In this document: positions 20,416 through 36,393 of the stretch, in pieces
Numbering within the stretch: the stretch's first letter is position 1
How the letters are laid out: the number at the start of each line of letters is the position of its first letter
Origin: Closterium sp. NIES-65
Lineage: Eukaryota > Streptophyta > Zygnematophyceae > Desmidiales > Closteriaceae
NCBI GenBank assembly: GCA_948144175.1
Contig: CANXME010002528.1
Location: 1,370,501 to 1,434,500, forward strand
Direction of reading: 5' to 3'
Length of the DNA: 64,000 nt
Notes under the pieces: model-generated
What the model saw: the letters and a program-made list of their open reading frames with translations, nothing else
Told to the model about the DNA's origin: nothing
The model's database searches: none
Position numbers and translations under genes: made by a program

Positions 20416-21033
20416 TCAGGTGGTTACTTGGCTGGCCATCTGTTTAGTAAGGAGGTCCTTCAATGTTGTGACAAGCGCATGCACATCATAATGCACTCCA
20501 GTACTGCTTTCACAGGTAAGTGAGGGCACCATAGTCTGGCGCAGGGGACAGGGCGGCACATCAGAATAATGCGATGGGATGGGATATGAATGCTGTGGAT
20601 CATGCGTACCAACCGGCATAGCATGGAAGGCAGACCACAGGCATGCGGGGCTAACACCTTGTAGCAGTGGGTAAGTGGCAGGACTTACCACAGAGGTGAC
20701 TCCCAAGTATGTGAGGCGTTCATGGTCAAGGGGAATGGCTCCTCCCTCTGGTGCGATGAGATGTGTCACATAGTGCATCGACTGCAGGAGATTGGAGGTG
20801 AGTGGCCACAGCAGAGAGGAACACGAGTGCAATGGACGAAGGGTAAGTGGGAGTTGAAAGCATGCAGGAATACACAGGTGTGAGCGGTGTTGTGTGCATC
20901 TGACCGAGTGGGTGAGGCGGTGGCTGGAGTCGTCTCCGAAGGTGCGGTTGAGGCAGTTGCAGATGGCGAGCACGAAGTCTGACGCCGCCATGCCCGCTGT
21001 TTCACGGTCCAGTGACCCGTTCAGCACTAGCAC
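20416..21033 (-). CDS. Host gene 1, exons 11-13
   Basis: Exon 11 (21033-20905) encodes VLVLNGSLDRETAGMAASDF and continues the CPK|VLVLNGS junction across the 11-kb intron. Exon 12 (20781-20689) encodes HLIAPEGGAIPLDHERLTYL and ends at a strong GTAAGT donor. Exon 13 (20535-20416) encodes STGVHYDVHALVTTLKDLL and the stop TGA. The acceptor of exon 13 (CGCCAG|ACTATG) is the least certain boundary, chosen because it keeps the frame and follows a pyrimidine-rich stretch. Confidence 0.82.
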   Translation of the reverse strand: MLVLNGSLDRETAGMAASDFVLAICNCLNRTFGDDSSHRLTHSVRCTQHRSHLCIPACFQLPLTLRPLHSCSSLLWPLTSNLLQSMHYVTHLIAPEGGAIPLDHERLTYLGVTSVVSPATYPLLQGVSPACLWSAFHAMPVGTHDPQHSYPIPSHYSDVPPCPLRQTMVPSLTCESSTGVHYDVHALVTTLKDLLTKQMASQVTT

Positions 21034-24000
21034 CTGCCATGCCATGCGCGTGTGGGGCGGATGAGGAAAACATGCCCCACAACATGTGATGCCACTGCGA
21101 GCTTTTTTCTCGGAACTCACGCCCTCCCGCACAAAAATGAACCGGTGAAAGGGAGGATGGCAACGGAAGAACAAAGAGAGTTGATGGGGTGTGCAGCAGA
21201 GCCGAGCATTCCTGCTTGGGATGTTCTGGTGCACTCGGCCATATCTTGGGATGTTCTGGTGCACTCGGCCATACCTTGGGGTGTTCTTGTGCACTCGGCC
21301 ATACCTTGGGGTGTTCTTGTGCACTCGGCCATACCTTGGGGTGTTCTTGTGCACTCGGCCATACCTTGGGATGTTCTGGTGCACTCGGCCATACCTTGGG
21401 GTGTTCTTGTGCACTCGGCCATACCTTGGGGTGTTCTTGTGCACTCGGCCATACCTTGGGGTGTTCTTGTGCACTCGGCCATACCTTGGGGTGTTCTTGT
21501 GCACTCGGCCATACCTTGGGGTGTTCTTGTGCACTCGGCCATACCTTGGGGTGTTCTTGTGCACTCGGCCATACCTTGGGGTGTTCTTGTGCACTCGGCC
21601 ATACCTTGGGGTGTTCTTGTGCACTCGGCCATACCTTGGGGTGTTCTGGTGCACTCGGCCATACCTTGGGGTGTTCTTGTGCACTCGGCCATACCTTGGG
21701 GTGTTCTTGTGCACTCGGCCATACCTTGGGGTGTTCTTGTGCTAAGTGGCAAAATACGCGTATTCCGTATATACGCGTGTCGTATATACGCACGCGTTTA
21801 TACGCTATACGCAAAGGTCCCGAGACCCTAGATACGCTATTTTGGGCAGGTTAAAAAAACATCGGGCAGCTAAAAAAAGACCCCCCTGCAATACTACTGG
21901 GGTAAGTTTCCACGGGGGTTGGATTTCCCGGTTTTTTTTCCCGATTTTTTTTTTTCACCAACATTACAATGACAACTACTCATCCCATACTACTACTATT
22001 ACACATACTACTACTCACGCTAGTCCAGATCAATTAACCCACCTACGCATACTCATCCTCCAAAATGTCGTCTTCCCCCTCCTCCTCCTCCTCCTCGTCC
22101 CCCTCCATCACATTGTAGCCCTCGGGCACGGGAGGCTCCGGGATGTTCCCGAGCACCACACCCGGCATGACATCTGCACGGGAATGCCAGTTGCGCACAA
22201 CGCTCCAGTTGTGCGCAACAAAAACCAAATCCCGGCACTTGGCAGAGCCAAGCCGGTTCCGGCGGGCCGTGTGCACCCCATCCCACGTTGACCATCCCCT
22301 CTCACATGGTGAAGCCGACACGGGCTGAGAGAGAGTCGTGATGGCTAGGGCCGCCAGCTTTGGTGCGTCAGTGCCGTGCCACTGCCACCACTTTACCATG
22401 TCATACTTGCCTTGCTTGACCAAGTTCCTCTGAGCAATTGCATCCCCCATCCCGAAGCTTCCCTTCATATCCAGAAATGCCCTCACCCCGTCCTGCAGTT
22501 CCATCAAAACCTCGCCAATGTCATCCCCATCATCCCCCTCCTTCCCGTAATTGCACAGGTGCTCGGCGTGCTGAGTGATGTACGTTTTGAATACCTTAGT
22601 GCACTCCGCGTCTGAGCCGAAGATGTCTTCATCCTGGTTCGCCGGGTTGAGAATTCTGCCCGCAATGTGCATGGGGCAGGCCAGGCTGTCGTCCCACCTG
22701 TTCTTCAGCAGGCGGCGGATGTTCACTTTGTCGGAGTAGCTCAGCTGCTCCTCATCCTCCTCCACCACTGTCCCCACATCCTCGGTCAACTGCAGCATCA
22801 CATCATACATCCGGCCCATCATCCCCTTGGCATCCCCATCGGTCTTACGCATTGCCATGAACGGGAGCTTCATCAGCTTGGAGAAAAACTCCGCCGTCCG
22901 CCACCACGCGTCATCAAGAACTTGTGACGCAAACTTATCCGCAGACTTCTTCCTATCCCCAACTACCCAACCCTTCAACACATCAGACACCACCATCTGT
23001 GCAAGCGACTGCCGCAACTCACAGAGACGGGACACAACAATGTACTGTGTCCCGAATCTGGTTCCAGCCGGTTTCAGCGCCTGCAGCATCTTAGCACCCA
23101 CCAGTCCGGGGGTCCTCATGTATCCCCTTGTCCAGTGGTGGTTGCGGACGAAGGAGCTGATCTCGCCCACAGTGTCCACCACCTTCTTGGCCCACGTCAT
23201 CTTGCCGACGTCCTCCATGAAGAGGTCCAACACGTGGGTGGCGCATGGCACGTGTTGAATGTGCGGCCATTCCGCGATCAGCTCGTTGCACGCCACCGCG
23301 TAGTTGGACCCACCGTCCGTGCAGAACGCCACCACGTTATCGGGACCGACCTCCTCCACCACGGGCCTGAGGATGCTGGCGACATCTTAGTGGGAATATA
23401 CGCTCCAACCCTTAAGCGTATAGCGTATACACGCTAGCGTGTGTACGCAAAACGCAATACGCTGGCTAATACGCTATACGCTATCAGAAAAATTTTCGGG
23501 CTGCCCAGGGAAAAAAAATCGCTTGTGTACAGAAAGATGCGGAATCTTCTGCTGAGCATTTCGCCTAAGTCGAAATGCAATTTGACGGTCTAGGGAAGCG
23601 GGAGTGGGCCTTCGAAGTTGCAGGCAGTTCAAATTTGAACATTAGATTGGTACCGCATTGGAACCCATATTATCTACCAATTCCAACCTGTCAAAAACGT
23701 GCCCCACCAGACCCCACTCACGCTACTTACCAGAGAGCAAAATTCCAGTCATCATTTCTAGTTGGCATTCCCACTTTCTAACAGCAGAGCTCCTTCCGAT
23801 TCCTACCTACTTCTCCTTTTAGTGTCTACTGTCAGAACTTGAGCTTAGAATCGATACTATAGTAGTGAGCTCAAAGCTCTCTAAGTACATCCGGAATGAG
23901 CAAGGTAGGGATGAGGAGGGAATCAGGAGGCAATCCTAAGGAATCAAGGGTAATCCCAAGGCAATCTCCAATTGGTGGGTTGGAGATTGCTTGGAGATTA

Positions 24001-27000
24001 CATTTGGGTTTGGTTGGGATGTGGGTGTACACCCAACCAAACACAAAGTGCAAACTACAATAAACTAGGATATAAAAGTACAAGTACAAAATGTGAGATT
24101 GGGGCCTAACACCAACACCCCCCCCTGAGGCGTCAATCGAACTCATGGCGGAGAAGGAGGAGCGCAGAGCCCCATGGCGCCAAGGAGACGATGGTGGGGA
24201 ACCTTCCCAAGGGGCTTGGTGAACAGGTCAGCCAGGTTGCAGTCAGATGCCACGTATTCCACCTTCAGCTGCTCTTGTTGCACAAGGTGACGAATGAAGA
24301 AGTGTCGAAGTTCAATATGCTTGGTGCGGGTGTGATACACAGGGTCTTGAGAGATGTGGATGGTACTCTGGTTGTCACACCAGAGGGTGGGGGCTGACTG
24401 AGGGAAGCCAAGCTCCTGGAGTAGGAAGGTGAGCCAACGGGCCTCCTGAGCAGCCATGGTGCCTGCGTAGAGCTCCGCCTCACAGGAGGAGAGGGAGACT
24501 GCAGACGACCTGGTGGAGCGCCAACTGACAGTTCCGCTCCCGAGGGTGAAGCAGTACCCCTGAGAGGAGCGTCGGTCGGTCTGGTCATCAGCCCAGGAGG
24601 AGTCTGTGTAACCTTCCAGGCGAGGAGGGGAGAGCCCACCGAGTGTGAGAACGTGGGACTTTGTGCCCTTAAGATAGCGCAGCACCCGCTTTGCTGCCTT
24701 CCAATGAAGATTAGTGAAGCGACCCGGGGCCACGTAACGAGAGAGAACACTGACTGGGTAGGCCAAGTCCGGTCGGGTGCACATCATGGCGTACATGAGG
24801 GACCCAACAAGTTCCGGGTATGGCTCAGAGCAGGCCTCTGGTGTGGGTACAGCAGGAGCTGTAAGGAGGTGTTGCAGCGGCAGCGGGGTGGCAACAGGTG
24901 TGCACAGCTCCATCTCAAACCGCTTGAGCACATTGTCGATGTAGAACTCCTGGGAGAGTGAGATGGTGCGAGCCTTGCGATCACGAGTGATCTCCATTCC
25001 CAGGTAGTGCTTGAGGTCACCGAGGTCTTTCATCAGGAGGGCCTTGCTCAGGGCTGCCTGGACTGAGGTCATTTGGGCCGAGTCCTTGGCAACGAGGATA
25101 AAATCATCCACGTAGACTAGGATGTAGAATGGCTCAGAATGACGACGGATGAAGAGAGTCGGGTCAGCAGCTGAGGGGTGGAAGTCCAGGGAGAGGAGGA
25201 CTTCTTTCACCTTGTTGTGCCATTCGCGAGGGGCCTGTTTAAGGCCGTAGACGGGGCGATTCAGCTTCCAGACAGTGTTGGGAGGGAATTCTCCTGGGAA
25301 GCCTTCTGGTCTGTCCATGAACACTGTCTCCTTGAGACGTCCTTGTAGGAAGGCGGAAGAGGCATCCATGGATTTGATCTCAAAGTCTTCTCGAGCTGCA
25401 ACATCCATGAGCGTTCGAATGGTGGGAGGTTTGGATGTGGGGGAGAAGATTAGGTCGAAGTCGCGGTACCGCTGCTGGGTGAAGCCCTTGGCTACGTAAC
25501 GCGCTTTGAACACCGGTGCCTCGTCTGGGAGCTGTTTTACACGGAATAACCACTTGCCCCCGACGATGTTGACTCCTGGAGGTGGAGTCTCGTCGTCGAA
25601 GGAGTGGTTGCGAGTGAATGCTGCAATCTCCGCGTCCATGGCAGCACGCCATTCGGCAGCATGAGGGCCTGAGAGAGCCTCTTGGATGGTGAGAGGGATA
25701 GGGATGGTCGGGTTCTCCGCGAGGTTGAGGGAGGGTGAGCCAGTGATATCGGGGAAGATGTGTGAGAGCTGAGGAATGACTGCATGGAGATCACACAGCT
25801 CCTCATGCCTGTCTTCTAGAAGGGTAGAGGGCACATCCCCCCTAGCAGGAGGAGGCGGTGTGATCGTTGTGTATCGAAGAACCATTGCGAGTGGAAGAGC
25901 AGCGCGATGGGAGCGGGTGCCATGAGCCACCGGTGAGGAGGGTGGGGCAGGCGGTGTCGGAGAGGGTGACTTAGGAGGCTTGGGTGGGGGAATGGGCCGC
26001 CGGCGGTACGTGATCAGCTCGGGCGACTGTGGGAGAGCGGGTTCCTCTGTGGTGGGGGGAACTGGGGGAGGAGGTGGGGCCGGAGGGTGGGACCGCCGAT
26101 GGTAGGTGATAGGTGCGCTCGGAGGGGGCGGTGCAGCGGGAAGTGAGGAAGGTGAGGGGGGGGGCGGAGCAGCTGCCGAAGACACCGGTGAGGCCGGGTC
26201 AGAGACCTCAGAGGGAGATGGTGGGATGGCAGGAGAGAGAGGAGGTGAGGGGGCAGGAGCAGGCGGGAGGTCGGGAGGCGCGTCAAAGTCTGCCCACACG
26301 AGGGAGGGTGGATCAGGGAGAGGGTCCCGTCCTGAAGGGGAGTAGAATGGGCGGGTCTCATCAAAGACAACGTCGCGGCTCCTGACCAACTGTTGAGTGG
26401 AGGGATTGAGGAAGAGGTAGTCAGGTGAGTCGGCGTTGTGCCCAAGGTAGATGCACGTTTGAGTCTTGGGACCGAGCTTGCCACCGTTCTGGCGTCGAGC
26501 CTGAGGGTTGAGGAGGACATAGGCGGTGCATCCCCAAACGCGAAGAGAGCGAGCAGTGGGCGTTTTCCCGAGCCAGAGTGTGGTTGGAGTGGTGTCGGGA
26601 AGGTGCGGATGGGGGTAAAGGTTGTAGAGGAGGGCGGCGTGGTAGAGAGCGTATCCCCAGAGAGAGTGTGGAGCGTTGGAGTGGCTGAGGAGGCACCGAG
26701 TGATCTTCACTAGGGTGTGGTTGCGGCTCTCAGCTATGCCGTTCTGTTGAGGGCTGTCAGGGAGGGTGAAGTTTTGCTGGATGCCTTCGGAGGAGCAGAA
26801 GGCTTTGAGCTTGTCGTTGCAAAATTCACCCCCCCCATCCGAGTGAAGGCGCTTGACCTTGCGGTCAAAGGTGGTCTGTGCCTGCTTGACCCACGCCATG
26901 ATGACCTCTGGAGCCTCAGCCTTAGTGTGGAGGAGGTGAACAGAGACGTATCGTGAGTGGTCATCCACGATAACTAGGAAGTAGCGATATCCACCTCGTG

Positions 27001-30000
27001 CAAGAACAGGGGCAGGGCCCCAGACGTCCATGTGCACTAGGTCCAGTGGTGTCGCTGCGATTGTGGGTGAGGCAGTGTGGGGCTGTTGGCGCAGTTTGCT
27101 CTTGGTGCAATCAAGGCACGTGGGAGCGGGTGAGTCAGGTGGTGGAGGAAGTGTGGCTGGCAGGCCGAGAAGAAGTTTCTTGGAGGCCATGTCAGCAAGC
27201 GTGCGAAAGTTTGGGTGCCCTAACCGATGATGATAGAGGATGGTCGGGTTGGAGAGGCTGCGACATGTGCATGGTGTGATGGGAGCCTGTGCTTGGGTGG
27301 TTGAAACCTGTGGGAGAGGAACGCGTAGCGTGTAGAGGCCGCTGCTATTGAGGGTGAAGCGGGCCAAGACCTTGTTGGTGAGTGGGTCAATGATGTCGCA
27401 GTGGTCCTCATTCTCCGAGAAGATGGTGCGTAGCCCTGCTTTCTGAATTTCTGTTTGAGCCACTAGATTGTGGCGTAGTGAAGGCGCGCACATGCCAGTG
27501 ACGGTGCCGGAAGGGAAGGCTGGGCATGGGACTGTGGAGGTGCCCTTGGCTAGGGTGGTGAAGCTGGAGTCAGCTCCCAAGAGAGGGATAGGTGCTGGAT
27601 AGGGTTTGAAGGAGAGTGTCTCCTTGAGCACAGTGTGAGTGGCCCCGCTGTCGAGTGTGAACTCTATGTACTGTGGTGCCTGTGATGAGTCGATGTACTG
27701 GGAAGTGGCTTCATTAATCATGGCAGTGCCAGGAAACAACAGGTTGATACGCACATCAACAGGAGCACTATCACTAGCACTAGCCGAAGAGGGGTCCTGG
27801 ACCTCAACGAGATTGGCCTTACGAGCGCGCATCCAGTTTGGCGGCTTCTTGTCAACCCCGTGGATGGCATACCACTCGTCGTCTTTCTTCTTGAAGCACG
27901 TGGCAAGGGGGTGGTTAGTGCCACCACACACTTGTCCCTTGCGGTTGCCATACTTGACGACGTAGGTGCACGGAGGAAAGCGGTTGCGCTGGAAAGACGC
28001 CGAGGCAAGGGCCGCTGCAACACTTGCTAGGGGCATGGGAGCACGGATGGCGTATGCCTTGGCCTGAGCCGTGGAGTCTTTCTCGGCAGAGAGGAGTGCG
28101 GTGGAGACCTTAGCAAAGGTGAGGTCTTCCGCTGAGAGCGTGAGGAGCATCTTCCTCGTGACTTCATATGCCGAGGAGAGACCAACAAGAAGGGCGGCTG
28201 CAGGGGCTTGTTCGGGGAAGACTATACCCAGCTCCTTGAGTTCACCATGAATGGTCTGCACCTTGGCGATGTAGTCAGCCATTCCTGAGCAGTCCTCAAG
28301 ACGGACTTGAAACATGCTGGGGATGAGAATCGCCACTCCGACCGCCGTCTTGTTCATGAACCGATCCTGGAGATACTTCCAGATGGCGTTGGAGGTAGGG
28401 TAGTTGTGGAACGTGTTGACAAGTTCGGGAGGGGTGGAGGCAATGAAGACGCTGATGATGGCAGCATCGGCCTTCTCCCACTTCCGGTACTTCTCAACAG
28501 CTTCTTCGTACGTCATCACGTCAGCATCACTTGAAGATTCGGTCGGTTCACGGGGAAGAGTGGGCTGTTTCCCCTTGCCACGGTTGAGGAGGACGTCCTT
28601 GAGGTCAAGGCCCTGCACGTCACGGCTCAGGAGGTGCTTGTCAACTCCGTAGCTCCACGCCTTGAAGTTGGAGCTAGAGCCATCGGCTTCAAGGCGGAGC
28701 GGGGTGATGGGGTTCGCCATGGTGGAAGACGAGAAAGCCATGGTGGAGACCCCTTAACTTCTCGCGCGGAGCGCCGCTCTTAAGTCACCGATAGGAACTT
28801 GAGGTTTGGGGTTTCCAAAGGAGATTTTGAAGAACCGGAGGTTTAGGGTTTACGAAAGAGAATATTGAGGTTTAGGGTTTCTGAAGGAGAATTTGACTGA
28901 GACGCCAATTTAGTGTCAACTACCTACTAGTCCTATTCCCACACACCCCCCCACACACCACCCTCAGCTTCGCGGCTACGCTGCTGCTCGGCTTCGCGGC
29001 TACACGGCTGCTCGGCTTCGCGGCTACGCTGCTGCTCGGCTGCGTTGCTGCACCTGTTCAGCTGCGGGAAAGAGGGGGGATGGGGGTAGGAGTGCAGATG
29101 CGGGGCGACGGGCGGCAGCCCGAAGATGACGCTGCGGGGCGACGGGCGGCGGCCCGACGAGAAGTTGCAGGGCGACGGGCGGCAGCCCGAAGAGAAGCTG
29201 CAGGGCGACGAGCGGCGGCCCGACGAGAAGCTGCAGGGCGACGGGCGGCGGCCCGACGAGGAGAAGAAGTGACGAGAGTGACGAATTGATGAAAACGAGT
29301 GTTAGGTTAGAGCGTCGACGATGCGCTTACCAGAGAAGTTTCCGTCGATGGTGACGGGAAGATGTGGCGGGAGAAATTCCGCCGATGAATGTCGCGAATC
29401 AACGGCGACGAGATTGGCGATGGCTTCCCCGAGGTTTGCGGGACAAGTATCCGCAGAGATGAGAGGATCACGATCCGCGTATGCGGTTGAGCTGCTCTGA
29501 TACCATGTCAGAACTTGAGCTTAGAATCGATACTATAGTAGTGAGCTCAAAGCTCTCTAAGTACATCCGGAATGAGCAAGGTAGGGATGAGGAGGGAATC
29601 AGGAGGCAATCCTAAGGAATCAAGGGTAATCCCAAGGCAATCTCCAATTGGTGGGTTGGAGATTGCTTGGAGATTACATTTGGGTTTGGTTGGGATGTGG
29701 GTGTACACCCAACCAAACACAAAGTGCAAACTACAATAAACTAGGATATAAAAGTACAAGTACAAAATGTGAGATTGGGGCCTAACACCAACATCTACTC
29801 CACGTCCCACCCCAATCGCCGTTCAGACTTAGGGAAATGCTACGAAAGTCTTAATGAGAATAGGGATCACCTTCTTGATCTTGAGCACGACGTCTTTTTC
29901 ACCCTGCCCGAGATAGTTTTTTACCTGCCCAAAAAAGCGTATTACCAAATCGACCCTTAAGCGTTTAGCGTATATACGTTAGCGTATATACGATACGCGT

Positions 30001-33000
30001 ATATACGCTATAAGCGTATATTCCCACTAAGGGCGACATAACCGCCGGTTTTGGTCTCCATGCGACAGTCCACGCTGTCCTTGAACACCGCACCGCTCTC
30101 GTTGACGAGAAACACGTTCGCCTGGGGGCGACCGTTCTTATCAGTCATCATATCAGAAGAAATTGTCACGCCGGTCCGCTTCCAGCTCGCCTTCACTCCA
30201 GAAAGCCCTCTGTCGATGTTCTCGCAACAGAGTCGCAAGCCCGCCCCGTCGATGAACGTCCTCGTCGGGGGGACGTATCCTGTGCCGGAGTCCCTAATGG
30301 CACAAACGGCGTTGATGAAGAGAGGGTGCGCCGCCACGCGCTCCGGGATTCGACACGCCGCGAACATCAGCGCCAACGCCTCGTGTGCATCGCGCTTCGC
30401 AGCTGCCGCATCTGTCTCCAAGTAGTCAGTAATGCGGCTCCTCTTTCCGCCGCTGGTGACCGACGCAATGGCATCCGATGTCGCCTGGCGGCGCTGATCC
30501 GCCGCTGCAGCCTTAGCCTCATACTTCTTTCGGATGGCAGCCCGTACTTCAGAGGGGGCTTCCTTGCATAGCGCCACTTCGCGGCGCCTCATCTTCCTCC
30601 AATTCGCCAAGTGCTGCGCGCAGCGGGTGGCGGCGCCAGAAAAGACATTGCAGCAGTACCTGCATTCGTATTGCTGCGATTTCCCCTCGTCCACCTTTAT
30701 GCGGCGGAAATGCTTGAACACCTCGTGGTCGACATCGGGAAGGTAAACTCGCGCCGACTGAACAGGACTGTCCGAGCTGGTATTACGAGGGGGAGTGGAC
30801 GGGGTCGGGCTAACATCTGCAGAAGACATTCTAAAAAGGTCTGTGAAGGTACATGGGAGGATGCATTGACGAGAGAGAACAATACCTGATTGTGAAGTAG
30901 CGTGGGATGGAGTGGTGGGGAGAAGTTGAATTGGAGGGAGTTTGTAGGTCGAGAGCGGTACAAATTGGTGGAACTCCAATGTGGAATGTCAAGGACATCG
31001 CGACTCCAAACATTGGAGCCACGTAACCCAACTCACAGTCGCGGGGCCGCGAATTGAAAGCACGGAAACCAACTCACCTCCATACATTGAAGCCACGTCC
31101 AGGCCAGGGTAGATCTCGGACGTGCATTTCGAGCACGGCCTCTTCTTCGCCGTGAGAAGACGAAACTTTTCAGATATACATTTTTTTTTTTTCGATTTTG
31201 GGCTGCCCTGAAAAAAACCCCCGAGCGTATTGCGTATTCGTTAGCGTATAGCGTTTTGCGTGTATACGCAAGCGGATAAACGCTAAACGCTTAAAGGCAA
31301 AAGCGTATTTTGCCACTTAGTTCTTGTGCACTCGGCCATACCTTGGGGTGTTCTTGTGCACTCGGCCATACCTTGGGGTGTTCTTGTGCACTCGGCCATA
31401 CCTTGGGGTGTTCTGGTGCACTCGGCCATACCTTGGGGTGTTCTTGTGCACTCGGCCATACCTTGGGGTGTTCTTGTGCACTCGGCCATACCTTGGGGTG
31501 TTCTGGTGCACTCGGCCATACCTTGGGGTGTTCTTGTGCACTCGGCCATACCTTGGGGTGTTCTGGTGCACTCGGCCATACCTTGGGGTGTTCTGGTGCA
31601 CTCGGCCATACCTTGGGGTGTTCTGGTGCACTCGGCCATACCTTGGGGTGTTCTGGTGCACTCGGCCATACCTTGGGGTGTTCTGGTGCACTCGGCCATA
31701 CCTTGGGGTGTTCTTGTGCACTCGGCCATACCTTGGGGTGTTCTGGTGCACTCGGCCATACCTTGGGGTGTTCTGGTGCACTCGGCCATACCTTGGGGTG
31801 TTCTGGTGCACTCGGCCATACCTTGGGGTGTTCTGGTGCACTCGGCCATACCTTGGGGTGTTCTGGTGCACTCGGCCATACCTTGGGGTGTTCTGGTGCA
31901 CTCGGCCATACCTTGGGGTGTTCTGGTGCACTCGGCCATACCTTGGGGTGTTCTGGTGCACTCGGCCATACCTTGGGGTGTTCTGGTGCACTCGGCCATA
32001 CCTTGGGGTGTTCTGGTGCACTCGGCCATACCTTGGGGCGTTCTGGTGCACTCGGCCATACCTTGGGGTGTTCTGGTGCACTCGGCCATACCTTGGGGTG
32101 TTCTGGTGCACTCGGCCATACCTTGGGGTGTTCTGGTGCACTCGGCCATACCTTGGGGTGTTCTGGTGCACTCGGCCATACCTTGGGACATGCGCGTGCA
32201 GCGATTGCTTCTCCCACCCCACGCAAGATCTAAGGTTCGGGAGAAAGGGATTGCGGACAGGACAGTGGCGAGGGCAACGAAAACGGGAGACATGAATTGA
32301 AAACTCTCTGCATATAGCAGTGATAGCGAGAGCATGACAGGAGCAAGACGTGAGGGAGATGAACACAAATGGTGAGAACGAGAAGATGGTAAGAAAGAGG
32401 GGTGTAGGTACCAGGGAGGGGCAGATGGAGGTGAAGAGGGAGCCAATGCCATAGATGATGGCATCCACTGATGCGATCTGCTCCAGCACTCGCGGATTCA
32501 CACGCGGGAACACCTGCCACACACCACACACCAACGATCCTCACACACGGTGATGAAAGATGGCAGCAATGGGCCTTAGAATCACACATGGCAAATGCAA
32601 GATGCAGCAGTTCCAGCAGTTGGCAGCTTGAAGCATCCCAGAGGTGGCGCACATGGCGGCACTGAGGTGAGCCCATGGCAGGCGGCACACACCTCATGTA
32701 GCAGGTTGGTGCCTTCACTCGACATGTAGAACACCCGGCGGATGGGCGCGGGCAGAGGAGGCGACGCGTCAGACGACTGCAGCGAGAATGGGGGTAGGAA
32801 AAGGGAGAGGAAGACAGGCAGCAGGAGCACACGTGAGGGAGAGGAAGACAGGCAGCAGGAGCACACGTGAGGGAGAGGAAGACAGGCAGCAGGAGCACAC
32901 GTGAGGGAGAGGAAGACAGGCAGCAGGAGCACACGTGAGGGAGAGGAAGACAGGCAGCAGGAGCACACGTGAGGGAGAGGAAGACAGGCAGCAGGAGCAC

Positions 33001-36000
33001 ACGTGAGGCACACTCCATCAACCTGGCTGGTGGACGTGTGTGGGTGCGAGGGGGGGGCGTGAAGGCATGCAGAGGCGGCATTGCAGCAGCAGGGTGGTGG
33101 GAGCAGTGCGACCTTGTCGACGGAGAGCAGCAGGTGGCGAGGGCTGTCCACGACAGCGGGGTGTGAGATTTCGTTCTGGCCGCGGATGATGCTGCCGTCC
33201 TGATGCCCACACCACACCACACCACACCACGTGGTGCGCCAACACGCATGCGGGAAGGGGAGGTCGCACGCTCAAAGACATAGGGGAGGGATATTGGGAT
33301 TAGATGAGAACTGGGACAAGTCACTGGAGGGAGTGGAAGGAGAAATGGGCCTTATGGTAATGACTGAAAAGGGATGGCCATGCAATGTTAATGCAGGGTC
33401 AAAGTGGGTGACAGTGCACTGAGAGGCAATGGAGGCGAGGAAGAGCCAGGCGGGGGCTTTTGTCAGACACAGGGCAGCACGAGGTGGTGTACGAGAGGGG
33501 GCTTTTGTCAGTATGGGAGGCATGGCTAAAGGGGGGAAGTGGTGTATGGAGGCGGTGTGTGGTTACGTAGAGCTCGGCGCCGAGAGTGAAGCGGTCGTTG
33601 GTGCAGACACAGGGCAGCACGAGGCTGCGCTGTGGGATGTTGGAGACGCGGGAGAAGAGGAAGATGGCAGCGTCCAGCGAGCGGAAGAAGGCGCGCGCGC
33701 CTGAGAAGAAGAAGTTGCCCACACTGGCAGGCATGCACGGGCACACACAGGTGGTTCGCATGGCATGATGGTGGCAGGTCAGAAGGACAAGTGGAGAGCG
33801 TAAGGTGGTAGTCATCGTAAGGGGTGTGGCGTGCAAGTGTCATGTCAGTACATCATGGCAAAAGGATGGGTGTGCGAGGAGGAAAGAGATACACACCTCC
33901 CATGCTGGAAGCAGAAGCGATGGCTTGCATTGCGGAGGATCTGGCATGGAGGGCAAGGCAGACAGGATGGAAGCAGACAAGGATGGGCACATGAGGACGA
34001 GGGAGAAGGTCCTGATGGGCTGTTGGTGACATGAGAGATGTTGCAAGCGGAGCAGAACAGAGGTGTCGAGGCGAGGAGAACCTGGTAGTGGAAGTGCAGG
34101 AGGAGAACCTGGTAGTGGAAGTGCAGGAGGAGAACCTGGAAGTGGAAGTGCAGGAGGAGAACCTGGTAGTGGAAGTGCAGGAGGAGAACCTGGAAGTGGA
34201 AGTGCAGGAGGAGAACCTGGTAGTGGAAGTGCAGGAGGAGAACCTGGTAGTGGAAGTGCACGAGGAGAACCTGGTAGTGGAAGTGCACGAGGAGAACCTG
34301 GTAGTGGAAGTGCACGAGGAGAACCTGGTAGTGGAAGTGCAGGAGGAGAACCTGGTAGTGGAAGTGCACGAGGAGAACCTGGTAGTGGAAGTGCACGAGG
34401 AGAACCTGGTAGTGGAAGTGCACGAGGAGAACCTGGTAGTGGAAGTGCAGGAGGAGAACCTGGTAGTGGAAGTGCACGAGGAGAACCTGGTAGTGGAAGT
34501 GCACGAGGAGAACCTGGTAGTGGAAGTGCACGAGGAGAACCTGGTAGTGGAAGTGCACGAGGAGAACCTGGTAGTGGAAGTGCACGAGGAGAACCTGGTA
34601 GTGGAAGTGCACGAGGAGAACCTGGTAGTGGAAGTGCACGAGGAGAACCTGGTAGTGGAAGTGCACGAGGAGAACCTGGTAGTGGAAGTGCACGAGGAGA
34701 ACCTGGTAGTGGAAGTGCACGAGGAGAACCTGGTAGTGGAAGTGCACGAGGAGAACCTGGTAGTGGAAGTGCACGAGGAGAACGTGGTAGTGGAAGTGCA
34801 CGAGGAGAACCTGGTAGTGGAAGTGCACGAGGAGAACGTGGTAGTGGAAGTGCACGAGGAGAACGTGGTAGTGGAAGTGCACGAGGAGAACCTGGTAGTG
34901 GAAGTGCACGAGGAGAACCTGGTAGTGGAAGTGCACGAGGCGAACCTGGTAGTGGAAGTGCACGAGGAGAACCTGGTAATGGAAGTGTACGAGGAGAACC
35001 TGGCAGTGGAAGTGCAGGAGGAGAACCTGGTAGTGGAAGTGCAGGAGGAAGGCGCGGATGATCTCCTTGTACGGATCCGACACGCCCCCCCACAGCTCAT
35101 GCTCGCCCTCCACTATGCTCAGCCTGCACACCCACCGCACACACACACACACCACATGCCCATGGCACGCCACACTGTGAGCCGTGCGCACCAGCCCACA
35201 GAGAACGGTGGGCAGGTGATGGATGTAGTAAGTGGTTGTGATGGGTGTGGTGCGGGCACGAGGTCACCATTCTGCCTTGGCGTGCGCGGGGTGCAGTGGC
35301 AGGCGGTGTCCCAGCAGTCGCCGCACTGCTCTGGCCTCATGGCTCGACCCGTCGGACAGGCGCAGGCAGCGCGAGCGAATGTCACCGATGGCAGGTCCAC
35401 CTGGGGTGGGGGCACAGAGGGTGGTGCGGGATGAGGGGGTCAAACAGGGTGTTGAGTGGGAGAGGTGGGCGCTGGAGGGAGCATGAGAAGCGTGATGTTG
35501 CAGCGTGATGCAGCAACAGTAGAACCACCTTGCGGGGGGGCGGTGAGGCAGAGAGCAGCAGGGTGTGAGTGAGTGGCTGACCTATGACGCGCACGATCTC
35601 TGCGGTGCTGCCGCCATCATCAGAGACGGGCAGCACGTGCGCCACGGCGGTGGTCCATTCGTGCAGCTCCTCCGCCACCGCGTTGAACGCCGTGCCTCCT
35701 GCCGCACCACGCACGGAGGGGGCACAAGGCCGGCACCACAGAGAGAGGTGCACGTCAGCATGTAGAGCTGCAGGGGTGGCGGGCAGGCGACAAGGGCAGG
35801 CGAGGCAGCAGGAGCAGCGGAAGGGTACCTGAGAAGACGAGCAGAGATGGCTCCTTGCACAGGTGGCCCTCCATTGATGCGCATGCATCCGCATGGGCGC
35901 TCCTGTGACTGTCCACACTAAAGGGCGCGTGTGACCAGGGGTGTGCTGCCCCTAGGGTGGGGGCTGACCCTGGCGTCACGGCGCCCAGCGCAGGCAGGTC

Positions 36001-36393
36001 AGCACACGTGGGTGCGGGCTGTGCGTGCGCGTGTGAGTGCGGGCCTGTTGTGCCCCGCTCCTCTGCTGCCGCACTGTCTCCTCGCCCTGCTGCTGCCCTC
36101 GCTCCCACCCCTGCAGCACAGCCTCGTTCCACGTGCTCGCCCTCACGCACGGTCATGTGTGACGCGCCTGCCAGCCCTCCCTCCTCCACGCCGCTGCCCC
36201 GCACCACCTCCCCCACGCGCACTCCCCTTGCAGCTGTGCTCGCCCGCTTCTCCTCCACCGCTTCTTGCCGCGGAACGATGTTCACGCGTCCCCCACGCAT
36301 TCTTCCCTCTCCCATCTCCCACTCCCGACTGTCCCCGCTTCCCCCGCTCTCCACCACCCTTGATCCCCCCGCTCCGCCTGTCCCCGCCGTCAT
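20416..36393 (-). CDS. Host gene 1: YvcK/CofD-like (UPF0052) protein, 13 exons
   Basis: Exons on the minus strand: 36393-35829, 35698-35582, 35400-35268, 35123-35027, 33940-33897, 33723-33567, 33199-33113, 32776-32693, 32513-32412, 32229-32182, 21033-20905, 20781-20689, 20535-20416. All introns are GT-AG and all phases agree, giving about 591 aa. Motifs of the CofD/YvcK fold are in order: VFSGGTAFN (nucleotide/phosphate loop), VSDDGGSTAEIV, GDIRSRCLRLSD, SVGNFFFSGAR, CTNDRFTLGAEL, GSIIRGQNEISHP, RRVFYMSSEG, IYGIGSLFTSICPSL and LVLNGSLDRET. Bacterial relatives bind UDP-sugars or transfer phospho-lactate; the plant function is unknown. The 188 residues of exon 1 before VFSGG are low-complexity and the start (ATG 36393) is uncertain. 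Introns 4 and 10 begin inside minisatellites, and intron 10 (11,148 bp) holds the hAT-1 nest. Confidence 0.9.
21215..21741. repeat. 30-bp minisatellite, distal part (left of hAT-1)
   Basis: There are about 18 copies of a 30-bp unit (ATACCTTGGGGTGTTCTTGT + GCACTCGGCC), with variants G/A after CTTGGG and G/T in TTCTGGT/TTCTTGT. It is the continuation of the array at 31321, cut off by hAT-1. On the minus strand each unit contains CCAAG|GTATGG. It ends about 180 bp before the exon 11 acceptor. Confidence 0.95.
22043..23385 (-). pseudogene. hAT-1 transposase, C-terminal part
   Basis: It continues SILRPVVEEVGPDNVVAFC, then FCTDGGSNYAVACNEL (second acidic motif), PCATHVLDLFMEDVG, and the hAT C-terminal dimerisation motif (PVSASPCERGWSTWDGVHTA, RNRLGSAKCRDLVF) before the stop. 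The tail is acidic (DEEEEEEGEDD). No other frameshift or stop is present, so the gene was intact when the MITE arrived. The shadow ORFs on the opposite strand have no support. Confidence 0.92.
23830..24117 (-). repeat. Copia-C 3' LTR
   Basis: In element orientation it runs TGTTGGTGTTAGG...AAGTTCTGACA, with a TATATCC promoter-like motif and a GGTTGGGTGTACACCCA palindrome. It matches the other LTR base for base as far as I could read. Confidence 0.95.
24118..24126 (-). other. Copia-C polypurine tract
   Basis: In element orientation this is AGGGGGGGG, directly upstream of the 3' LTR and 17 bp after the gag-pol stop codon. Confidence 0.85.
24143..28741 (-). CDS. Copia-C gag-pol polyprotein (1532 aa)
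   Basis: A single ATG-initiated frame. Gag capsid occupies about residues 1-250, then a Cys/His stretch (CTYVVKYGNRKGQVCGG...CF, 258-282). Retropepsin DSGA is at 364. GAG-pre-integrase (HHRLGHPN...CLDC) precedes integrase with acidic residues at about 572 (HMDVWGP), 634 (HSDGGGEF) and 670 (NGIAESRN). A Pro/Ser-rich linker (about 790-950) leads to RT with YVDD near 1209 and RNase H with Asp near 1378 (YTDSSWADD), Glu near 1422 (CEAELYAG) and Asp near 1455 (CDNQST). The C-terminal NLADLFTKPLG is intact. No stop or frameshift is present. Like other copias, it would be cleaved by its own protease and assemble particles in the cytoplasm before nuclear integration. Confidence 0.97.
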   Translation of the reverse strand: MAFSSSTMANPITPLRLEADGSSSNFKAWSYGVDKHLLSRDVQGLDLKDVLLNRGKGKQPTLPREPTESSSDADVMTYEEAVEKYRKWEKADAAIISVFIASTPPELVNTFHNYPTSNAIWKYLQDRFMNKTAVGVAILIPSMFQVRLEDCSGMADYIAKVQTIHGELKELGIVFPEQAPAAALLVGLSSAYEVTRKMLLTLSAEDLTFAKVSTALLSAEKDSTAQAKAYAIRAPMPLASVAAALASASFQRNRFPPCTYVVKYGNRKGQVCGGTNHPLATCFKKKDDEWYAIHGVDKKPPNWMRARKANLVEVQDPSSASASDSAPVDVRINLLFPGTAMINEATSQYIDSSQAPQYIEFTLDSGATHTVLKETLSFKPYPAPIPLLGADSSFTTLAKGTSTVPCPAFPSGTVTGMCAPSLRHNLVAQTEIQKAGLRTIFSENEDHCDIIDPLTNKVLARFTLNSSGLYTLRVPLPQVSTTQAQAPITPCTCRSLSNPTILYHHRLGHPNFRTLADMASKKLLLGLPATLPPPPDSPAPTCLDCTKSKLRQQPHTASPTIAATPLDLVHMDVWGPAPVLARGGYRYFLVIVDDHSRYVSVHLLHTKAEAPEVIMAWVKQAQTTFDRKVKRLHSDGGGEFCNDKLKAFCSSEGIQQNFTLPDSPQQNGIAESRNHTLVKITRCLLSHSNAPHSLWGYALYHAALLYNLYPHPHLPDTTPTTLWLGKTPTARSLRVWGCTAYVLLNPQARRQNGGKLGPKTQTCIYLGHNADSPDYLFLNPSTQQLVRSRDVVFDETRPFYSPSGRDPLPDPPSLVWADFDAPPDLPPAPAPSPPLSPAIPPSPSEVSDPASPVSSAAAPPPPSPSSLPAAPPPPSAPITYHRRSHPPAPPPPPVPPTTEEPALPQSPELITYRRRPIPPPKPPKSPSPTPPAPPSSPVAHGTRSHRAALPLAMVLRYTTITPPPPARGDVPSTLLEDRHEELCDLHAVIPQLSHIFPDITGSPSLNLAENPTIPIPLTIQEALSGPHAAEWRAAMDAEIAAFTRNHSFDDETPPPGVNIVGGKWLFRVKQLPDEAPVFKARYVAKGFTQQRYRDFDLIFSPTSKPPTIRTLMDVAAREDFEIKSMDASSAFLQGRLKETVFMDRPEGFPGEFPPNTVWKLNRPVYGLKQAPREWHNKVKEVLLSLDFHPSAADPTLFIRRHSEPFYILVYVDDFILVAKDSAQMTSVQAALSKALLMKDLGDLKHYLGMEITRDRKARTISLSQEFYIDNVLKRFEMELCTPVATPLPLQHLLTAPAVPTPEACSEPYPELVGSLMYAMMCTRPDLAYPVSVLSRYVAPGRFTNLHWKAAKRVLRYLKGTKSHVLTLGGLSPPRLEGYTDSSWADDQTDRRSSQGYCFTLGSGTVSWRSTRSSAVSLSSCEAELYAGTMAAQEARWLTFLLQELGFPQSAPTLWCDNQSTIHISQDPVYHTRTKHIELRHFFIRHLVQQEQLKVEYVASDCNLADLFTKPLGKVPHHRLLGAMGLCAPPSPP
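28742..29490 (-). repeat. Copia-C leader with tandem repeats
   Basis: It lies between the primer site and the gag ATG. It holds about five copies of a 33-bp unit (CGACGGGCGGCGGCCCGACG core) at 29100-29265, three copies of a CTTCGCGGCTACGCTGCTG unit at 28965-29045, and three AGGTTTAGGGTTT-like telomere-style motifs at about 28799-28882. No ORF is supported. Confidence 0.8.
29491..29505 (-). other. Copia-C primer binding site (tRNA-iMet type)
   Basis: In element orientation TGGTATCAGAGCAGC begins directly after the 5' LTR end CTGACA and matches the copia consensus for priming by initiator methionine tRNA. Confidence 0.95.
29506..29793 (-). repeat. Copia-C 5' LTR
   Basis: Same length and, by eye, same sequence as the LTR at 23830, followed by the second copy of the TCTAC target duplication. 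Confidence 0.95.
30032..30829 (-). pseudogene. hAT-1 transposase, N-terminal part (split by MITE)
   Basis: It starts at ATG 30829 (MSSADVSPTPSTPP). A BED-type zinc finger spans about residues 34-76 (HEVFKHFRRI, CRYC, CAQHLANW). The N-terminal catalytic-domain motif ISSDMMTDKNGRPQANVFL lies near residues 230-250. The frame breaks at GGYVA, inside the 8-bp duplication made by the MITE. The second part is at 22043-23385, and the two halves are in the same frame once the MITE and one TSD copy are ignored. Confidence 0.92.
31321..32189. repeat. 30-bp minisatellite, proximal part (starts at exon 10 donor)
   Basis: There are about 29 copies. On the minus strand the first unit begins at the donor of exon 10 and each copy repeats the last six exon bases and the first 24 intron bases. 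Units next to exon 10 are nearly uniform (TTCTGG), while the distal ones mix TTCTGG and TTCTTG. The frame continuing from exon 10 is open throughout, coding VWPSAPEHPK or VWPSAQEHPK per unit. Confidence 0.95.
32182..33199 (-). CDS. Host gene 1, exons 7-10
   Basis: Four phase-0 exons: 33199-33113 (DGSIIRGQNEISHP), 32776-32693 (PIRRVFYMSSEGTNLLHE), 32513-32412 (VFPRVNPRVLEQIASVDA, GSLFTSICPSL) and 32229-32182 (ILRGVGEAIAARACPK). Exon 10 ends CCCAAG|GTATGG, and CCAAG|GTATGG recurs every 30 bp in the following intron. All joins are exact multiples of three. Confidence 0.88.
32806..33006. repeat. 34-bp minisatellite in intron 7 of host gene 1
   Basis: There are about six copies of a 34-bp unit (AGGCAGCAGGAGCACACGTG core). 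In the gene's orientation the unit is pyrimidine-rich (CTGCCTGTCTTCCTCTCCCT) and the array ends close to the exon 8 acceptor, like a duplicated polypyrimidine tract. Confidence 0.9.
33567..33940 (-). CDS. Host gene 1, exons 5-6
   Basis: Exon 5 (33940-33897, 44 bp) encodes ILRNASHRFCFQHG plus two bases. Exon 6 (33723-33567) completes the Ser and encodes VGNFFFSGARAFFRSLDAA and NDRFTLGAELY. The join restores the family's HFxxxILxxxxxxFxFxxGSxGNFFF pattern. The donor of exon 6 is TAC|GTAACC. Confidence 0.87.
34071..35050. repeat. 27-bp minisatellite at the exon 4 donor of host gene 1
   Basis: There are about 36 copies of a 27-bp unit. On the minus strand it is GTGCACTTCCACTACCAG followed by GTTCTCCTC. 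The first copy overlaps the last ~20 bases of exon 4. Variants are mainly GTG/CTG at the Val/Leu codon and a few CCACGTT for CCAGGTT. The frame from exon 4 is open across the whole array and codes VLLVHFHYQ per unit. Confidence 0.95.
35027..35400 (-). CDS. Host gene 1, exons 3-4
   Basis: Exon 3 (35400-35268) encodes GPAIGDIRSRCLRLSDGSS and RRLLGHRLPLHP and ends in phase 2 at GAATG|GTGACC. Exon 4 (35123-35027) encodes LSIVEGEHELWGGVSDPYKE and IRAFLLHFHYQ. The first possible donor is CAG|GTTCTC at 35026, and the same CAG|GTTCTC recurs every 27 bp downstream, so the end of exon 4 is the minimal choice. Confidence 0.85.
35582..36393 (-). CDS. Host gene 1, exons 1-2
   Basis: Exon 1 ends CTTCTCAG|GTACCC at 35829 (phase 1) and exon 2 spans 35698-35582, so the join gives LLVFSG|GTAFNAVAEEL. 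Exon 2 encodes HVLPVSDDGGSTAEIVRVI and ends at ATAG|GTCAGC. The Gly-rich loop and DDGGS motif form the ligand-binding start of the family fold. The sequence before residue 175 is Ala/Gly/Arg-rich and could be a poorly conserved targeting region or partly mis-assigned 5' sequence. Confidence 0.85.

What the first reader, a model, noticed from the sequence alone, without database searches (positions are those of the whole stretch)
31321..32229. 30-bp minisatellite in which every unit is a copy of a 5' splice site
On the minus strand exon 10 of host gene 1 ends CCCAAG|GTATGG. The 30-bp unit is those last exon bases plus the first intron bases, repeated about 29 times here and about 18 more beyond hAT-1. 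Each unit carries a usable-looking CCAAG|GTATGG donor in phase 0, and 30 is divisible by three. No stop occurs in the exon frame across the array, so splicing from any unit would add n copies of a 10-residue module (VWPSAPEHPK) without a frameshift.
Basis: partly seen in the sequence, partly recalled or inferred. Interest (0 to 1): 0.92.

Follow-up and report, generated by a model that had tools for sequence, protein, structure and literature searches.

The report
Minisatellite that repeats a splice donor
In a green alga, a 30-base repeat has grown exactly across the end of an exon, so one splicing signal now exists in dozens of in-frame copies; similar repeats are known in human genes, and whether the extra copies are used is untested.

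Summary
On the minus strand, exon 10 of a 13-exon CofD/MEE18-like gene (Closterium, by nearest proteins) ends at 32182 in CCCAAG|GTATGG. A 30-bp array starts there (28.9 copies, plus 17.6 beyond a hAT-like element); 45 of 46 donor positions keep GT. Frame and absence of stops are as described but say little: all six frames are open.

A homeolog (C180) has 6 units and no hAT. An older partial copy (C2293) has one unit between CCCAAG and CCCACG, so the array probably arose by duplication between short repeats. The excess over chance is modest.

The constrained protein (dN/dS 0.11) lacks the module: a relative's predicted protein joins ACPK to VLVLNG, and none of 34 aligned sequences has an insertion there. 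I favour a near-neutral, boundary-spanning minisatellite spliced mainly from the first donors, with possible minor in-frame isoforms. Donor-providing minisatellites are known (human 6-16; CBS 31-bp VNTR). No RNA could be examined.

The parts
32182..32229 (-). exon 10 (J), 48 nt, ILRGVGEAIAARACPK, ending CCCAAG|GTATGG
   Evidence: gene model; same junction in P0001
31321..32187 (-). proximal segment of the 30-bp array; 29 donors CCCAAG|GTATGG including the native one
21215..21741 (-). distal segment of the 30-bp array; 16 units with GT, one with AT
21742..31320 (.). hAT-like element inserted in the array; ends CTAAGTGGCAAAATACGC; target duplication TTCTTGTG (21734-21741 and 31321-31328)
   Evidence: class name recalled from ends and duplication length, no family search
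23830..29793 (-). Copia-like element nested in the hAT-like one; identical 288-bp end repeats 23830-24117 and 29506-29793; long minus-strand ORF 24143-28753
   Evidence: class recalled from the ORF by eye
20905..21033 (-). exon 11 (K), VLVLNGSLDRETAG..., acceptor GGCAG|GTG
20416..36393 (-). host gene, 13 exons A-M, 591 aa, CofD (PF01933) / MEE18-like
35027..35123 (-). exon 4 (D), ending ...IRAFLLHFHYQ|GTTCTC, phase 0
34072..35049 (-). second donor-spanning array, 27 bp x 36.2, unit GTTCTCCTCGTGCACTTCCACTACCAG, starting inside exon 4; would encode VLL(V/L)HFHYQ
32802..33008 (-). 34-bp x 6.1 array in intron 7, near but not across the acceptor of exon 8

Best explanation
This is a minisatellite born by tandem duplication across an exon/intron border of a working gene. 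Two near-identical hexamers, CCCAAG at the exon end and CCCA(A/C)G 30 bases later, probably let slippage or unequal exchange duplicate the stretch between them; because that stretch begins with the intron start, each copy inherited the splice donor. It persists because it is silent as long as a donor at or near the exon end is used; use of a later proximal donor adds a 10-residue in-frame module instead of truncating the protein. Shown: anatomy, single-copy form in an older partial copy, large copy-number difference between homeologs, constraint on the protein without the module. Inferred: the duplication mechanism, that most transcripts use the first donor(s), and that a minority may use later ones.
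For: The C2293 copy has one unit bounded by CCCAAG and CCCACG. Window and C180 copies differ 46 to 6 in units, and 36.2 to 88.2 at the 27-bp array. Both copies are constrained: 14 synonymous and 5 nonsynonymous changes in exons D-M, dN/dS 0.11. P0001 has the ACPK|VLVLNG junction. None of 34 aligned sequences (P0001 and 33 others, of 120 listed) has an insertion at either junction. In a model of P0001 residue K478 starts a strand and Q304 lies in a helix (mean pLDDT 61.6). The module was not found in Closterium proteins. The gene family carries several other arrays that do not span a donor (13, 14, 20, 21, 26 and 34 bp), so array birth is common there.
Against: No transcript was examined, so first-donor use is inferred; P0001 may be a prediction without RNA support, and whether its gene carries the array is unknown. 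P0001 stands for a cluster of 7 sequences that I could not list. A predicted paralog, P0006, reads introns 9 and 10 through as protein, with about one and a half units in another frame. Nearly all donors are intact, but the array is so homogeneous (45 full units, 5 sequence types) that this neither supports nor excludes selection on them.
Confidence: 0.72

Rival explanations
1. A working splicing ladder: donors across the proximal array are used at appreciable rates, and the gene makes a graded family of proteins with n copies of VWPSA(P/Q)EHPK, and perhaps m copies of VLL(V/L)HFHYQ at exon 4.
For: 29 proximal donors with the same 12-base core, in phase 0, no stop until 31291; two arrays of this sort in one gene, both in phase; the donor scores second of the gene's 12 with a generic matrix from memory (8.8); exon 10 has only 48 nt, so longer versions may be recognised at least as well (inference); the human 6-16 minisatellite is titled as providing multiple splice donor sites (reference seen).
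Against: No such protein found; no insertion at the junction in 34 aligned sequences; relative's predicted protein uses the first-donor junction; all six frames are open, so openness is no sign of use.
Confidence: 0.18
2. The donor array is kept because many U1 binding sites in a row help recognition or transcription of a weak or very long intron; the extra donors act as a platform and not as cut sites.
For: 45 of 46 donors intact; the intron has grown to 11,148 nt in the window against 361 nt in C180.
Against: The array existed before the intron was long: C180 has 6 units in a 361-nt intron, and the older partial copy has one. Units are too alike for a selection test.
Confidence: 0.05
3. Artefact or dead gene: the array is mis-assembled, or the gene no longer works.
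For: Long tandem arrays are prone to misassembly; a hAT-like element with a nested recent Copia-like one now sits in the intron; other copies in this genome are broken or partial.
Against: The array sits at the same exon border on a second contig with other copy number and flanks; the window gene is intact and constrained; the DEAD-box arrays agree between two contigs. Exact copy number remains unverified.
Confidence: 0.05

Closest known systems
Minisatellite of a human interferon-induced transcript (6-16/G1P3/IFI6; Turri, Cuin and Porter 1995, NAR 23:1854)
   Same: A minisatellite whose units provide multiple splice donor sites (title, seen in reference lists). PMC3618361 cites it for 'interfering with gene splicing'.
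   Different: Human gene; the paper was not held, so unit, copy number and splicing data could not be compared. That it is the 6-16 gene is recalled, supported by its citation in G1P3/IFI6 papers.
Human CBS 31-bp VNTR, c.1444_1467+7(16_21)
   Same: By its name the unit covers 24 last exon bases and 7 intron bases, so each unit carries the donor; 16 to 21 copies (passages of PMC2630376; reading of the name is mine).
   Different: 31 bp is not a multiple of three, so a later donor could shift the frame; one array per gene, allelic variation shown in people. Here two arrays, 30 and 27 bp, and variation between homeologs only.
CBS 68-bp duplication (c.844_845ins68)
   Same: Local duplication of an intron/exon junction that is functionally neutral because one of the two sites is strongly preferred (passages of PMC2630376).
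   Different: A single duplication, at an intron 7/exon 8 junction.
Intron gain by tandem genomic duplication (potato RdRp, PMC4974935)
   Same: Tandem duplication that copies splice signals (listing and start of abstract only).
   Different: There a new intron is gained; here an existing intron start is multiplied and no new intron is evident.

Membership tests
Splice-donor minisatellite (6-16 / CBS type) | Tandem array overlaps the exon end and the 5' splice site | tested here: met
   Array starts 6 bases inside exon 10, and inside exon 4 for the 27-bp array
Splice-donor minisatellite (6-16 / CBS type) | Units carry a GT donor equal to the native one | tested here: met
   45 of 46 donor positions in the window, 6 of 6 in C180; 27-bp array: 33 CAG|GTT and 3 CAC|GTT in the window
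Splice-donor minisatellite (6-16 / CBS type) | Copy number varies between alleles | tested here: inconclusive
   Varies between homeologs, 46 to 6 and 36.2 to 88.2; alleles not available
Splice-donor minisatellite (6-16 / CBS type) | More than one unit is used as donor in transcripts | not testable with these tools
   No RNA data
CofD / MEE18-like gene | CofD domain over the gathering score | tested here: met
   PF01933, 128.1 bits against 30; Klebsormidium MEE18 at 66% identity
hAT element | Inverted ends and 8-bp target duplication | tested here: met
   CTAAGTGGCAAAATACGC ends, TTCTTGTG duplication
hAT element | hAT transposase domain | not tested
   ORFs 22043-23386 and 30008-30988 look hAT-like by eye; no family search run

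The most novel reading that the evidence does not exclude
In Closterium, introns repeatedly grow by serial local duplication of exon/intron borders, leaving long rows of working splice donors and extra exon ends that the spliceosome samples, so some genes make graded families of in-frame protein variants whose range differs between homeologs.
Probability: 0.15. Interest if true: 0.75.

Novelty: new member of a known kind. Interest (0 to 1): 0.45.

Why it matters
It is a natural test of how a spliceosome chooses among dozens of nearly identical donors spaced 27 or 30 nt apart, in one gene, with unit numbers 46/6 and about 36/88 in two homeologs of one genome. With the extra exon ends seen in 3 of 5 sampled DEAD-box gene pieces, it suggests that border duplication may be a recurrent way for introns to grow in this alga, which belongs to the group closest to land plants (recalled). 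If no ladder is seen, that itself would show strong positional choice of the first donor.

Tried and rejected
Rejected: 'no stop in the exon frame' as evidence for coding use (all six frames are open). Rejected as a general rule: 'donor-spanning units are multiples of three' (27 and 30 in the intact gene, but 37 in the broken copies and 22-24 and 35 in a DEAD-box gene). Led nowhere: donor-motif test on 101 arrays in 20 random 10-kb pieces (mean rank 0.60; 12% at p <= 0.1), where many arrays look like transposon coding repeats and the gene's own donors score low, so power is poor. By-eye look at arrays in seven random pieces with host-like ORFs: no clear donor-spanning array of three or more copies; two-copy candidates at L017 3668 and L019 5910 (oriented) were not followed; exon borders there were mostly not defined. 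'plasmids' search with the array: no match. Strain: Closterium by nearest proteins, but the window's protein is not identical to P0001 or P0002, and no paper in the library names Naga37s-1 or Yama58-4. Literature on donor-spanning repeats in algae: no case recognised in the listings; one search found no paper. A genome-wide count of triple CCCAAGGT was planned and never answered.

Left out of the placement test (nine arrays of 13-37 bp with at least 3 copies in some copy of the gene): a C run, a CT run, a 19-bp row of 2.3 copies, a 27-bp row of 2.2 copies in exon A, the 181-bp and 6-bp arrays downstream in L036-L038, and the 31-bp satellite of L010.

Full report
What was claimed.

Observation. 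Tandem Repeats Finder reports 28.9 copies at 31320-32187 and 17.6 at 21215-21742, both 98% matched. I built a gene model on the minus strand by joining exons at AG/GT borders: 13 exons, 1776 nt with stop, 591 aa. The protein has a CofD domain (PF01933, 128.1 bits); the best-scoring of 1036 proteins found are Closterium proteins, then Klebsormidium and land-plant proteins named MEE18 or YNL011C-like (best 120 listed). The first hit, P0001 of Closterium sp. Yama58-4, also has 591 aa and the same two junctions, ACPK|VLVLNG and HYQ|ILRN; how it was predicted is unknown. Exon 10 ends at 32182. CCCAAGGTATGG occurs 29 times in the proximal segment and 16 times in the distal one, and one distal unit reads AT for GT. 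In a search of the whole genome with 180 bases of the array, matches lay on C2230 (the window, 11), C180 (1) and C2293 (1) (a capped search).

Qualifications. Both array segments are open in all six frames, so the open exon frame is no argument for coding use. The segments are separated by a hAT-like element (21742-31320) with inverted ends and a perfect 8-bp target duplication TTCTTGTG. A Copia-like element with identical 288-bp end repeats lies inside it. In the exon frame a stop follows at 31291, so distal donors cannot simply extend the exon. The intron has 11,148 nt here and 361 nt in the C180 copy (coordinates).

History. The same genome holds at least five places with exon F of this gene: the window, C180, two on C1616 and one on C1892. 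The C180 copy (L009) matches the window at 94-97% over the main aligned stretches. Exons D-M show 14 synonymous and 5 nonsynonymous changes, dN/dS 0.11, dS 0.06. Many rows of a DEAD-box search come in pairs of equal or near-equal score on different contigs, so I take the two copies for homeologs. L009 has 6 units of the 30-bp array and no hAT, and 88.2 copies of the 27-bp array. A partial copy on C2293 (L010; exons J-M found in the 10 kb fetched, exon J twice) has a single unit between CCCAAG and CCCACG. The copies on C1616 and C1892 look broken: exon H does not read through in one frame, and exons E and I-M were not found in the 9 kb fetched from each. The array therefore most likely arose by duplication between the two hexamers and grew most in the window copy.

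The event recurs. In the broken copies the same 27-bp array has 3.8 copies, and a 37-bp array spans the donor of exon H (3.1, 3.1 and 5.1 copies). In L009 a 26-bp array x 16.2 starts just after that donor without copying it. Of nine array families that I counted in this gene family, three span a donor and none an acceptor. Random placement gives P = 0.017 for three or more, and P = 0.087 for two or more of eight if the finding's own array is left out. That is a modest excess.

Other genes. I could fetch only five pieces of other DEAD-box genes, chosen among the 48 rows because two rows lay close together. One (C995, and its pair C1732 where fetched) has an exon tail three times, followed by further CCCAAG|GT donors including a 22-bp x 9 array, and in C995 a 35-bp x 2.8 array over the next donor. 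Three of the five pieces (C995, C2093, C228) carry extra partial exon copies in the neighbouring intron, at either end of exons (C995 repeats an acceptor with the first 8 codons too); C389 and C1718 do not, nor do three tested exons each of an RPL13a-like (L015) and a PTEN-like (L012) gene (gene names by eye). Among 101 arrays of 20 random 10-kb pieces there is no donor-motif excess, and a by-eye look at seven of those pieces gave no clear further case.

Does the ladder exist? Nothing here shows it. A search with VWPSA(P/Q)EHPK modules found two weak unrelated proteins among 5620 candidates; one with VLL(V/L)HFHYQ modules found none among 1917. Both see only proteins of about 0.55 to 1.75 times the query length, and P0001 stands for a cluster of 7 sequences that I could not list. 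P0006, a predicted paralog of strain Naga37s-1, reads introns 9 and 10 through, with about one and a half units in another frame; I take it for a gene-model fault. None of 34 aligned sequences (P0001 and 33 of the 119 other listed hits) has an insertion at either junction. In a predicted model of P0001 (mean pLDDT 61.6) residue 478 starts a strand and residue 304 lies in a helix. Against this, the donors are alike and close together, the native one scores second of the gene's 12 with a generic matrix, and exon 10 has only 48 nt, so some use of later donors would not surprise. I put detectable minor ladder products near even odds; appreciable use, as the rival states it, at 0.18.

Known precedents. 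Human CBS has a 31-bp VNTR named c.1444_1467+7(16_21), which I read as 24 exon and 7 intron bases; the same paper describes a neutral 68-bp duplication of an intron/exon junction (passages of PMC2630376). [quoted passage not shown] PMC3618361 cites it for 'interfering with gene splicing'; the paper was not held). Intron gain by tandem duplication is described too (listing only). A Closterium genome paper reports extensive gene copy variation and mean intron lengths of 485-554 bp (passages of PMC10407611). The kind is therefore known. Two such arrays in one gene, both in frame, and repeated exon borders elsewhere in this alga are what is new here, as far as my searches show.

Noticed in passing
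34072-35049: Second donor-spanning minisatellite (27 bp x 36.2) in the same gene, at the end of exon 4; 88.2 copies in the C180 copy.
   Followed up: yes
21742-31320: hAT-like element inserted into the array, with a Copia-like element (identical 288-bp end repeats) nested inside it.
   Followed up: partly
L039 + L044 (C995:735000-737400, minus) and L045 (C1732): DEAD-box gene with an exon tail present three times and several donor-spanning repeats (22-24 bp; 35 bp in C995).
   Followed up: partly
L041 (C2093) and L043 (C228): Extra partial copies of exons in the introns next to them, in two further DEAD-box genes.
   Followed up: partly
L036, L037, L038: Broken copies of the gene with many locus-specific arrays (21, 20, 26, 37 bp), followed by a 181-bp satellite.
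   Followed up: partly
L010 1-3558: 31-bp satellite, about 114 copies, upstream of a partial gene copy that has only exons J-M in the fetched 10 kb.
   Followed up: no
own genome: Many DEAD-box matches occur as pairs of equal or near-equal score on different contigs, as in a hybrid, duplicated or two-haplotype assembly.
   Followed up: no
L017 3668 and L019 5910 (oriented as): Two-copy repeats of 11 and 21 bp at what look like exon ends.
   Followed up: no
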